A stretch of 64,000 bases of DNA from Gammaproteobacteria bacterium (GTDB taxonomy: Bacteria > Pseudomonadota > Gammaproteobacteria > Pseudomonadales > Cellvibrionaceae), in NCBI GenBank assembly GCA_004172865.1, contig SEBV01000006.1, positions 62,001 through 126,000 of the forward strand, in the 5' to 3' direction. Below are positions 38,072 to 40,483 of the stretch, one piece after another; position 1 is the first letter of the stretch; every line of letters begins with the position of its first letter. The position numbers and the translations under genes are program-made. A model generated the notes under the pieces. That model saw only the letters and a list, made by a program, of their open reading frames with translations. It was not told where the DNA came from and searched no databases.

Positions 38072-38704
38072 TCAGAAAGTGTATTCTACTCCAGTCGATA
38101 GCGTGCTTAGCGCGAAGTCCCCCGCGTTAGTGCGGCGCGCATCAACGCGCAGATTAAGCGAATCATTTAGCGCATATTTTGCGCCCACGCCATAGACCAA
38201 TCCTTGATCCGAAGCGTTGCTTTTCATCGGACTGATGCCGGTAACAGGGGAAAAACCACCGGATTGTGTTGCCTCATAATCCATTGCCATCACACCCAAA
38301 ACCCCGAAAATCGAAAAATGGGTGAAAAGCTTGTAACCAAAAACGCCTGAAACGGACGCGCCTTTGGCTGATACAGATTGCGTATCGTTCGGGCTCACTA
38401 TAAAAATCACATCACTTCGAAGCTTAAAACGATCTGTTGCTTTGCCAAAATCGGAATAGCCCAATTCTGCCGCGAACCAATTATTAAATTGAAAGCCCAG
38501 ATGCAGTCCGTAACAAGTATCCAACCCACCGAAATTCTGCCCGGCGATAAATAGAGAATCATTGCGCGGGCCATCACCTGAGAAATGCGTGCGTCCGACA
38601 TCTGCCCCAAAATAAAACTCACCGGTTTCAGCGGCGACTTGTTGCCCTGCACATAGGCATATCACCAAAGATGTGAGCACACTTAATTGCTTAATATTCC
38701 TCAT
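38072..38704 (-). CDS. Small outer-membrane beta-barrel protein (OmpA-like barrel)
   Basis: This 210-residue protein has a signal peptide ending QQVAAE and a predicted 8-strand barrel: GEFYFGADVGRTHFSG, GLHLGFQFNNWFAAELGYS, VSGVFGYKLFTHFSIFGVLG, and the last strand STLSTGVEYTF with a terminal Phe. There is no peptidoglycan-binding domain. Role unknown. It stands alone, separated from murJ by 116 bases and divergent from yebG. Confidence 0.75.
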   Translation of the reverse strand: MRNIKQLSVLTSLVICLCAGQQVAAETGEFYFGADVGRTHFSGDGPRNDSLFIAGQNFGGLDTCYGLHLGFQFNNWFAAELGYSDFGKATDRFKLRSDVIFIVSPNDTQSVSAKGASVSGVFGYKLFTHFSIFGVLGVMAMDYEATQSGGFSPVTGISPMKSNASDQGLVYGVGAKYALNDSLNLRVDARRTNAGDFALSTLSTGVEYTF

Positions 38705-38854
38705 AGGATTCTTCGCTACTGACCAAGGACACTTAAACGGAACCCAACATTTACATACTGGAATAGAGCTAGTGTAAGTAAGTCAAACCCTTGAAAAATA
38801 GGCGATATTTGCACGCAATTGTTAAAGACTGTAAGTCGTGATTACAAAAAATAG

Positions 38855-38895
38855 TTGACTCTTACAGCGCTTTAAAATACTGTACATAAAAACAG
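38855..38895 (+). promoter_or_regulatory. yebG promoter with LexA (SOS) box
   Basis: TTGACT (38855-38860), a 17-base spacer and TACTGT (38878-38883) make a promoter candidate. The LexA box CTGTACATAAAAACAG at 38880-38895 keeps CTGT-N8-ACAG and overlaps the -10, the usual layout for repression. Confidence 0.85.
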
Positions 38896-38915
38896 TAAAA
38901 CCAAGAGGAAATACC

Positions 38916-39206
38916 ATGACAGTAGTCGCCGTATGGCTTTGTGATCGGGATGGCAGCATGTTTGAAGACAAAAAACTCGCAGAAGAACACGACAAATATC
39001 TTGAACTGGCTGCAAATATTACCCAGCTAATTGAAGAAAATATTCCCGGTATTGATGAGCAACACAGTGAAGCGATTGGTTTATTGCTCGCTCAGCGTCG
39101 TGAGCTGTTAGCTAAAGCCTGTAAAGGCAAACCCGATGAATTGTTACAACCATTTACCTACGAAAAACCCGTAACCCTGAATGCCAGCGTTGCCGCTAAG
39201 GACTAG
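38916..39206 (+). CDS. yebG: YebG-family SOS-induced protein
   Basis: YebG is a small DNA-damage-inducible protein of unclear biochemical role. The 96-residue product starts MTVVAVWLCDRDGSMFEDKK and has the YebG pattern EEHDKYLELAANI and GLLLAQRRELLAKACKGKP. AAGAGGAAA precedes the ATG. A strong LexA box lies 20 bases upstream, supporting the name and SOS control. Downstream the same strand runs into a hairpin-rich stretch ending in a terminator. Confidence 0.9.
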   Translation: MTVVAVWLCDRDGSMFEDKKLAEEHDKYLELAANITQLIEENIPGIDEQHSEAIGLLLAQRRELLAKACKGKPDELLQPFTYEKPVTLNASVAAKD

Positions 39207-39224
39207 GACATAAGGCAGCAATGC

Positions 39225-39482
39225 GAGTTAGCGTTTGGTGCAAATCAAACGCCACCGATTTGCCCACAAGGCTTTATCTGCAAAGCCTATAAATCGGTGC
39301 GATCAGATTCATACCGAAACACCACGTCGACTTGAACCTGATTAGCTAAACCTGGATGGCTCTCCACAAGCCCTCCACTTTTCATGTGTTTGTAACTATG
39401 GCCATAGCTGCAAACACATGATCCCCTTTCACCACTGCACCTTCTTCTAATGGAAGCCTCAACGGGTGCGGTGGTTTTTATA
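39225..39482 (+). ncRNA. Candidate structured RNA or structured 3' UTR downstream of yebG
   Basis: The 317-base gap after yebG holds a series of perfect or near-perfect inverted repeats. GCGTTTG/CAAACGC pairs 39231-39237 with 39246-39252. CACCGATTT/AAATCGGTG pairs 39253-39261 with 39291-39299 and encloses AGGCTTT/AAAGCCT. ATCAGATTC/GAACCTGAT (one mismatch) pairs 39302-39310 with 39334-39342. GGATGGCT/AGCCCTCC (one mismatch) spans 39354-39376. CATGTGTTTG/CAAACACATG pairs 39383-39392 with 39411-39420. The last hairpin is a terminator with Ts on the + strand. No protein frame is convincing. I recognise no known RNA family. It may be an independent RNA or the tail of the yebG message. Confidence 0.5.
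39431..39480 (+). terminator. Terminator at the end of the structured region
   Basis: ACCACTGCACC (39431-39441) pairs with GGTGCGGTGGT (39465-39475) over 11 bp, with one G-T wobble, and is followed by TTTTTA. A short inner TTC/GAA pairing is possible. Confidence 0.75.
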
Positions 39483-39523
39483 TTCGAAAAATATTGCAAA
39501 AAGAATTTCATTTTTACGTGCGA

Positions 39524-40483
39524 TTATCCATCAGCCTCACACAAACTACACAGCGCACTATCCGCATCGGGATAAGCAAACTCAAAACCACTCGCTAATA
39601 AATTTACCTGTGCTACTCGTTGCCCCTCCAACAATAAATCTGCCTGCTCACCAAGCATTAAACGCATGGGCCACGCCGGCGTCGGGAAAAAGCAGGGCCG
39701 ATGTAAAATATTTGCAGCCACTTTGCTAAAATCAAATTGAGTCAGAGCTTCTGGCGCAGTGAAGTTGTAAGTCGTTATTAAATTCTCAGATGATTCGGCA
39801 GCAGTGTGAAACTTCCATAGATGAGCAATGCCGCGCAATAAATCTTCAATGTGAATCCACGATAACCATTGCTTTCCGCTGCCTAACTTTCCGCCTAAAA
39901 ATAGTTTAATCGGTAGCAGCAACATTGGTAGCGCTCCACCCTGCCCAAGGACCAAACCAAAACGCATGCATGCAACGCGAACGCCGTATTGACTGGCAGC
40001 CTGAGCAGCACGCTCCCAATCGTGACAGAGGCTCGCCATAAAAATAGATTGCGTATGACTGTCTTCAGTTAATTCAGTATCGTCACCAATCGCCTGAATA
40101 CCGTAATAACCTATAGCAGATGCCGATAATAATAATTTTGGTTTTTGTTCTGCTTTTGCAATCCAGTTCACCAGATTATTTGTCAATTCAATTCGGCTTT
40201 TTCGCAGAACTGCTTTTCGTGCATTAGTCCAGCGCCAACCTAAAATACGCGCGCCTGCTAAATTGATAATAATATCGATAGGATAATTAGCCGGAAGCTT
40301 ATCCATAGCTTCAACGCATTTTACTTTTCCATCAAAAAGCTGCGCCGCTTTTTTGGCGTTGCGAGTCAAAAGGGTTACACGCTGTCCGTCAGCCAATAAA
40401 TTCTCAACGAGCAATTTTCCAATAAATCCAGTCGCGCCTGTTACCAACACGTTTTCACTTTTATCACTAAAATGTATTGGCAT
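39524..40483 (-). CDS. TIGR01777-type NAD-dependent epimerase/dehydratase (YfcH-like)
   Basis: This 319-residue protein of the extended short-chain dehydrogenase group begins with the NAD-binding NVLVTGATGFIGKLLVENL. IIINLAGARILGWRW, SASAIGYYG and ACMRFGLVLGQGGALP are typical of the TIGR01777 subgroup. The C-terminal domain (PTPAWPMRLMLGEQADLLLEGQRV) is the usual DUF1731 ending. Substrate unknown. It starts 15 bases after a small membrane-protein gene, so the two form an operon. In other bacteria the family is often mislabelled as a cell-division inhibitor. Confidence 0.88.
   Translation of the reverse strand: MPIHFSDKSENVLVTGATGFIGKLLVENLLADGQRVTLLTRNAKKAAQLFDGKVKCVEAMDKLPANYPIDIIINLAGARILGWRWTNARKAVLRKSRIELTNNLVNWIAKAEQKPKLLLSASAIGYYGIQAIGDDTELTEDSHTQSIFMASLCHDWERAAQAASQYGVRVACMRFGLVLGQGGALPMLLLPIKLFLGGKLGSGKQWLSWIHIEDLLRGIAHLWKFHTAAESSENLITTYNFTAPEALTQFDFSKVAANILHRPCFFPTPAWPMRLMLGEQADLLLEGQRVAQVNLLASGFEFAYPDADSALCSLCEADG

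What the first reader, a model, noticed from the sequence alone, without database searches (positions are those of the whole stretch)
39225..39482. Hairpin-rich 250-base stretch after yebG: possible undescribed structured RNA
Six stems, four of them perfect over at least seven base pairs and one nested inside another, occupy almost the whole gap and end in a terminator on the + strand. That density is far above what neighbouring gaps show and no protein frame explains it. Because it follows the LexA-controlled yebG on the same strand, it may be an SOS-linked 3' RNA, a separately transcribed sRNA, or a riboregulator of unknown type. I could not match it to any RNA family I know.
Basis: partly seen in the sequence, partly recalled or inferred. 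Interest (0 to 1): 0.7.

Follow-up and report, generated by a model that had tools for sequence, protein, structure and literature searches.

The report
SOS gene's hairpin-array 3' RNA
Behind a DNA-damage gene (yebG) in Cellvibrio bacteria lies a conserved chain of RNA hairpins that show off short C-rich loops, very probably a new regulatory RNA made when DNA is damaged, though what it binds is not yet known.

Summary
39207-39482 is by far the most structured 276-base block of the window (fold z -7.0, rank 1 of 231, next -3.5). It begins right after the yebG stop and ends in a terminator; yebG has an exact CTG-N10-CAG LexA-type box (38880-38895). Of 20 same-genus (Cellvibrio) genomes with yebG, 19 keep the terminator there and 16 the C-rich-loop hairpin array; so do 8 of 8 genomes of another genus, and two Marinimicrobium genomes keep the terminator. 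Stems covary (30 of 80 pairs changed on both sides in an 11-sequence sister subclade, 0 of 500 shuffles as good), while apical loops are C-rich, G-poor and conserved (CGCCCACA, ACACCAC, YCCACA, CUCCCCAG, CCUCAAC). G-U exceeds A-C in stems, pointing to a + strand RNA. No Rfam family matches. Best reading: an SOS-co-expressed 3'-UTR RNA acting in trans through its loops, architecturally like 6C/B11 and CsrB-type RNAs, positionally like Klebsiella DinR. Transcription, processing and target are unproven: ftsZ (DinR's target) and rRNA were tested as partners without support. Protein titration and a purely cis role are the main rivals. New variant of a known kind.

The parts
38880..38895 (+). LexA-type operator CTGTACATAAAAACAG upstream of yebG
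   Evidence: Exact CTG-N10-CAG; a CTG-N10-CAG box 36-74 nt before yebG in 22 of 23 loci examined, L048 being the miss. LexA binding itself not tested.
38916..39206 (+). yebG coding sequence (96 aa)
   Evidence: Pfam PF07130 YebG, E 1.9e-23
39207..39482 (+). Whole structured 3'-UTR element: hairpin array plus terminator
   Evidence: Fold z -6.4 and -7.0; counterparts behind yebG in relatives
39231..39252 (+). Hairpin A, GCGTTTG/CAAACGC
   Evidence: a hairpin at the same place in L040 carries a CCUCCACA loop, here the loop is GCAA
39253..39299 (+). Hairpin B, CACCGATTT/AAATCGGTG, with unpaired CCCACA (39263-39268) and a nested AGGCTTT/AAAGCCT hairpin (39269-39288)
   Evidence: absent from the alternative MFE of a 273-nt version
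39301..39345 (+). Hairpin C with loop ACACCAC (39319-39325)
   Evidence: ACACCAC, UCACCAC or UACCAC in the corresponding loop of most relatives, with different stems
39353..39377 (+). Hairpin D with loop CUCCACA (39362-39368)
   Evidence: Loop YCCACA kept, stem letters exchanged in L039, L041, L053; L040 has ACCACU
39382..39421 (+). Hairpin E, long palindromic stem with inner UAUGGCCAUA
   Evidence: inner UAUGGCCAUA also in L040 and L053 with different outer stems
39431..39482 (+). Intrinsic terminator ACCACUGCACC...GGUGCGGUGGU with U tail and unpaired CCUCAACG (39457-39464)
   Evidence: 29 yebG loci hold it (picked by the CCUCAAY motif); CCUCAA invariant in the 24 aligned, stem 97.2% paired; model R2 matches strongly only at yebG

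Best explanation
The element is the structured 3' UTR of the yebG mRNA. Transcription from the LexA-type promoter runs through yebG and stops at the terminator at 39482. The 3' part, either still attached or released by an RNase, folds into an array of hairpins whose main conserved letters are short C-rich, G-poor apical loops (YCCACA, ACACCAC, CUCCCC, CAGCCAC, CCUCAAC, the set differing by branch). I propose that it acts in trans as a small RNA: each loop is a pre-presented seed that pairs with G-rich stretches such as ribosome-binding sites of mRNAs, so that DNA damage represses several targets at once. Shown here by computation: structure, strand, conservation, linkage to yebG, loop motif. 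Inferred: SOS induction, transcript ends, trans action. Unknown: targets.
For: Extreme + strand folding here and in relatives: 25 of 29 elements beat all 60 shuffles, 24 of 29 still do so without the terminator (some of the 29 are near-identical). Covariation in 11 relatives: 30 of 80 pairs changed on both sides against 16.0, sd 2.4, shuffled; 95.3% of cells paired against 30-50% when slid. G-U 29 against A-C 5 at 52 pairs with a Watson-Crick majority. Found behind yebG each time, while the window's downstream gene was detected in only 3 of 20 same-genus loci. Loops: 56 of 77 non-terminator loops of 5 nt or more carry CCAC or CCCA against 21.7, sd 3.4, for shuffled loops; 57 of 78 carry CCAC/CCCA/CCCC against 18 of 238 in random G018 stretches. 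LexA-type box in 22 of 23 loci. Precedents: DinR, an SOS 3'-UTR sRNA from dinI that represses ftsZ (passages of PMC10907235); B11, which represses eccB4, whose 5' UTR has a six-G tract that B11's two C-rich loops could bind (passages of PMC10470900).
Against: No transcript data. ftsZ ranks only 202 of 617 (G018) and 56 of 306 (G000) gene starts for best loop duplex, and mismatched arrays rank it better. No loop stands out for pairing with 16S or 23S rRNA after allowing for 16 tests. No target was found. The strict covariation test rests on a sister subclade, not on the window's own branch. Loops differ between branches; L055, L057 and L059 keep little beyond the terminator, and L056 has no excess of structure without it (z +0.4). 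The minus strand also folds better than its shuffles in many relatives.
Confidence: 0.45

Rival explanations
1. Protein titrator: the array is a multivalent decoy, like CsrB/RsmZ for CsrA, that presents several copies of a C-rich loop motif (core YCCACA) to an RNA-binding protein not yet identified, and so ties SOS induction to that protein's regulon.
For: The same core recurs in several hairpins of one molecule and the number of hairpins varies, as expected for a titrator. Stems drift more than loops (stem columns 0.82 identical on average, four loop stretches 0.86-0.96, one linker 0.98).
Against: No protein with this specificity is known to me. Loops at given positions differ from one another (CUCCCCAG, CCUCAAC) and each is kept at its own position, which fits specific pairing at least as well.
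Confidence: 0.25
2. Cis-acting 3' UTR: the hairpins only shield yebG mRNA from 3' exonucleases, insulate against read-through into the converging gene, or let YebG or another factor tune yebG itself.
For: It is directly attached to yebG and all strong terminator-model matches lie at yebG. A converging gene ends about 40 bases beyond the terminator in this window.
Against: Shielding or termination does not need conserved loop letters. G017 (L058) and many other yebG loci of the family make do with what looks, by eye, like a plain terminator. The converging gene was detected in only 3 of 20 same-genus loci within the fetched flanks.
Confidence: 0.23
3. DNA-level or repeat feature: cruciforms, or a mobile palindromic element of REP/MITE type.
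For: The stems are palindromic in DNA, and the minus strand also folds better than chance here and in many relatives.
Against: Single copy: no second copy in the own genome, an assembly of 229 contigs. Strand bias of wobble pairs, G-U 29 against A-C 5. No plasmid match; two records of one phage match only 42 bases.
Confidence: 0.04
4. Chance clustering of hairpins in one intergenic gap.
For: None found.
Confidence: 0.01

Closest known systems
DinR (3'-UTR sRNA of dinI, Klebsiella pneumoniae; PMC10907235, passages read)
   Same: Lies at the 3' end of a small LexA-controlled DNA-damage gene; no own promoter found for either.
   Different: Different gene (dinI against yebG) and clade; DinR is 157 nt and is cut out within the coding sequence by RNase E; its ftsZ target is not specifically supported here. 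No sequence comparison with DinR was made.
6C RNA / B11 (Actinobacteria; PMC10470900, passages read)
   Same: Hairpins with C-rich loops that can bind G tracts in 5' UTRs.
   Different: B11 has two C-rich loops and, as recalled, its own gene; here two to six loops with YCCACA-type cores in the 3' UTR of a gammaproteobacterial gene; no Rfam match.
CsrB / RsmZ titrator RNAs (recalled; tested only through Rfam and the loop list)
   Same: Array of hairpins with a repeated loop motif and a terminator; stems drift.
   Different: Motif is C-rich (CCACA), not GGA; no Rfam match of any kind; linked to an SOS gene.
NrsZ of Pseudomonas and CcsR/cuckoo RNAs (recalled only; the search listed no paper on them)
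   Same: Several stem-loops exposing C-rich loops aimed at ribosome-binding sites (recalled).
   Different: Different locus and control; no sequence comparison made here.

Membership tests
3'-UTR-derived regulatory sRNA (DinR type) | Lies at the 3' end of an mRNA and ends in an intrinsic terminator | tested here: met
   39207-39482 follows the yebG stop; terminator stem with U tail; co-transcription itself is inferred
3'-UTR-derived regulatory sRNA (DinR type) | LexA-type operator before the parent gene | tested here: met
   CTG-N10-CAG box in 22 of 23 loci; binding and induction not tested
3'-UTR-derived regulatory sRNA (DinR type) | Stable, processed or separate short transcript | not testable with these tools
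   No RNA-seq available
3'-UTR-derived regulatory sRNA (DinR type) | Pairs with the ftsZ ribosome-binding site | tested here: inconclusive
   ftsZ ranks 202 of 617 and 56 of 306 by best loop duplex: no support
6C/B11 RNA | Rfam covariance model match | tested here: not met
   No match at gathering score in the window or in 18 relatives' loci
6C/B11 RNA | C-rich apical loops | tested here: met
   Loops 46.9% C, 10.8% G against stems 26.5% C, 31.7% G over 29 elements
CsrB/RsmZ titrators | Rfam model match to a CsrB- or Rsm-type family | tested here: not met
   No match to any family
CsrB/RsmZ titrators | GGA motifs in apical loops | tested here: not met
   None of the 6 loops listed for the window element holds GGA; GGA stands in one 5' loop each of L039, L041 and L053
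Any Rfam 15 family | Score at or above the gathering threshold | tested here: not met
   0 matches in the 64-kb window and 0 in 18 loci; the only sub-threshold match near it (E 2.1) lies outside the element
REP/MITE palindromic repeat | Multiple copies in the genome | tested here: not met
   Only the locus itself and its own reverse palindrome match strongly; next best E 0.7

The most novel reading that the evidence does not exclude
A DNA-damage-induced titrator RNA: a CsrB-like hairpin array, built into the 3' UTR of yebG, that displays several copies of a YCCACA loop to sequester an RNA-binding protein of unknown identity, giving the SOS response a post-transcriptional arm in Cellvibrio and related genera.
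Probability: 0.25. Interest if true: 0.85.

Novelty: new variant of a known kind. Interest (0 to 1): 0.6.

Why it matters
yebG is a classical SOS gene whose protein has no assigned function that I know of. A conserved, covarying 3' RNA on its presumed transcript suggests that part of the locus's role may lie in the RNA. In the DinR paper (passages) none of the SOS-box genes enriched with Hfq was tied to an sRNA except dinIR, so a second, unrelated case from another clade would point to a general design: small DNA-damage genes carrying a regulatory RNA in the 3' UTR. The repeated C-rich loop also gives a ready bait for finding its partner.

Tried and rejected
ftsZ as target (the DinR precedent): the ftsZ start region of the genus is G-rich (AAAGGGGUGUGGCC-AUG in 11 of the 19 loci that I gave to the script, of 21 fetched; GGGGAG-type forms in the window's branch), and one loop form GCCACACC (L042-L045, L048) matches GGUGUGGC perfectly. 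But ranked against predicted starts ftsZ is 202 of 617 in G018 and 56 of 306 in G000, and mismatched arrays (loops of one genome against starts of the other) rank it better, 31 of 617 and 4 of 306. Only part of each genome was used: 0.8 of 4.5 Mb and 0.4 of 5.2 Mb, with starts called by a home-made rule. Not supported.

rRNA as target: the first attempt used the wrong strand. On the right strand 3 of 16 loop-rRNA comparisons had 6 or fewer of 100 shuffled loops as long: UACUCCCCAG and GGCUUCCAAC with 16S, UGGAACCUCAA with 23S. Too weak after 16 tests.

Model R1 (hairpins 1-2 of the sister subclade) finds nothing convincing in the own genome or window; the window's branch has different stems. 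Terminator model R2: strong only at yebG loci; of its many weaker matches I opened 7 in the family and 5 of 8 in the rest of the order, and saw ordinary terminators or nothing recognisable. No coding explanation: no + strand ORF within it, minus ORF without Pfam hit. A first whole-window z scan timed out and was repeated with fewer blocks. Literature: searches were read as listings only; passages were read of PMC10907235, PMC3009722 and PMC10470900. What is said of 6C, CsrB, NrsZ and CcsR beyond those passages is recalled.

Full report
What was checked. The stretch after yebG was read and folded. It is 276 bases from the yebG stop (39207) to the end of the terminator (39482). Its minimum free energy of -97 kcal/mol lies 6.4 standard deviations below dinucleotide shuffles, 0 of 200 as stable; the reverse strand gives -3.2. 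In 231 non-overlapping blocks of the same size it ranks first with z -7.0, the next being -3.5. Rfam gives no match at gathering score in the whole window, and the only weak match near it lies beyond the element.

Conservation and linkage. A DNA search of 144 family genomes found matches to the 3' end of the element in the same genus; in 19 same-genus genomes, the own one included, yebG lies beside the match. Searching with YebG gave 126 of 144 genomes; 20 of 21 same-genus genomes have yebG (G030, 79% complete, has none). Of those 20, 19 have the conserved terminator within 450 bases; G017 (L058) does not. Sixteen (L038-L053) have the array of C-rich-loop hairpins; L054 keeps one such loop, L055 and L056 little beyond the terminator. 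Outside the first 30 loci, 78 of the remaining 96 yebG loci were fetched and read. Together with L066, 8 of 8 genomes of genus g13 have the terminator and C-rich-loop hairpins; L057 (g17) and L059 (g21) have the terminator with little else. Names identify the genus as Cellvibrio (the contigs of C. mixtus J3-8 and Cellvibrio sp. OA-2007 have the lengths of those of L042 and L052); L057 and L059 have the 3' sequences of the Marinimicrobium records L285 and L286. The downstream converging gene of the window was detected near yebG in only 3 of 20 same-genus loci within the fetched flanks, so the element goes with yebG.

Structure. 25 of 29 elements fold better than all 60 of their shuffles, and 24 of 29 still do so without the terminator; L039, L055, L056 and L059 fall short in the first count, these and L057 in the second. 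L081 and L100 gave identical values, so the 29 are not all independent. The minus strand also beats its shuffles in many Cellvibrio rows, less so in g13. In the 11-sequence subclade L042-L052, 31 of 83 predicted pairs have a change on both sides. With the named structure of 80 pairs, 95.3% of cells pair (shuffled 88.1), 30 pairs change on both sides (shuffled 16.0, sd 2.4), and no shuffle of 500 reaches the covariation score; slid structures pair 30-50% of cells. The tool warns that related sequences can exceed shuffles without structure; the slide control and the individual fold z-scores argue against that. In the terminator alignment (24 of 29 rows used; L043, L044, L045, L048, L100 left out) 97.2% of cells pair against 93.7 shuffled and 4 of 11 pairs change on both sides (11 of 500 shuffles reach that), but the number of pair types is no better than shuffled (409 of 500). 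The window's own branch (L038-L041, L053) is too divergent for a mechanical alignment. There hairpin D was paired by hand in 5 sequences: stem letters are exchanged while the loop stays YCCACA, except ACCACU in L040.

Strand. At 52 pairs of A1 chosen for a Watson-Crick majority, departures are G-U 29 times and A-C 5 times on the + strand; over all array pairs 80 against 8, a count biased by RNA folding of that strand. This points to selection on a + strand RNA, not on DNA cruciforms or an antisense RNA.

Loops. Apical loops of the MFE folds (helices under 3 pairs opened) are 46.9% C and 10.8% G, against 26.5% and 31.7% in the stems. In 16 Cellvibrio arrays 56 of 77 loops of 5 nt or more (CCUCAA loops left out) contain CCAC or CCCA, where shuffling within each molecule gives 21.7, sd 3.4; in g13 15 of 18 against 7.5, sd 1.8, with some near-identical rows. 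For C-rich motifs in general: array 57 of 78, yebG 3' regions of g22 24 of 118, of other genera 20 of 150, random G018 stretches 18 of 238. In A1 four loop stretches are 86-96% identical and the CUUCCAAU linker 98%, the stems 82%. Position-specific loops of the subclade are CGCCCACA, CGCCCACACA, UCACCAC, CUCCCCAG and CAGCCAC; the terminator has CCUCAAC (CCUCAAU in L057) in 29 elements, which were picked by that motif, so the count is not an independent test. The covariance model of the terminator matches 29 of 143 family genomes at E 6e-10 or better, each at yebG (24 of the 29 are its training rows); the next match, 7e-7, is an ordinary terminator. Among 293 sampled genomes of the order only three match strongly, all of the family.

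Control. An exact CTG-N10-CAG box lies at 38880-38895, and such a box precedes yebG in 22 of 23 loci examined (L048 is the miss). The consensus scan finds no sigma-70-type site in 38700-39700 at all, so its silence about an internal promoter is weak evidence. Co-transcription with yebG under LexA is therefore inferred, not shown.

Mechanism. Loops kept on drifting stems are what one expects of an RNA that binds something with its loops. Pairing with G-rich mRNA starts (as proposed for B11) or titration of a protein (as CsrB does; recalled) both fit. DinR shows that a LexA-controlled gene can release a 3'-UTR sRNA. The DinR target ftsZ was tested and is not specially favoured; rRNA was tested without a clear result. 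I put trans-acting pairing at 0.45, protein titration at 0.25 and a purely cis role at 0.23.

Novelty. No Rfam family matches in the window or in 18 relatives' loci, and no paper on this locus appeared in the listings (open-licence PubMed Central only). It is a new RNA of a known general kind, with an unusual array architecture and an SOS link.

Noticed in passing
yebG 3' regions of family genus g22 (30 loci within L071-L117): 29 of 30 fetched g22 loci share the core AUCCCUGUACU within 450 bases of yebG, by eye mostly as an unpaired UUCCAUCCCUGUACUCUG just before a plain terminator; 0 of the other 48 loci fetched with them have the core. It looks like the seed of a separate, non-homologous yebG 3'-UTR sRNA.
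   Followed up: partly
L194-L213 (ftsZ loci of the genus): The ftsZ start region is conserved and G-rich, AAAGGGGUGUGGCC-AUG in 11 of 19 extracted loci; the window's branch has GGGGAG-type forms.
   Followed up: partly
G018 C1:1737645-1751909 (whole-genome handle): Several partial 23S rRNA matches lie just before a complete rRNA operon, suggesting a broken or interrupted copy.
   Followed up: no
window 39287-39511, minus strand: 74-codon ORF antisense to the element, no Pfam match; probably a by-product of the stems.
   Followed up: partly
L058 (G017): The one same-genus genome with yebG but without the element; by eye it has a plain GC-rich terminator-like hairpin instead.
   Followed up: no
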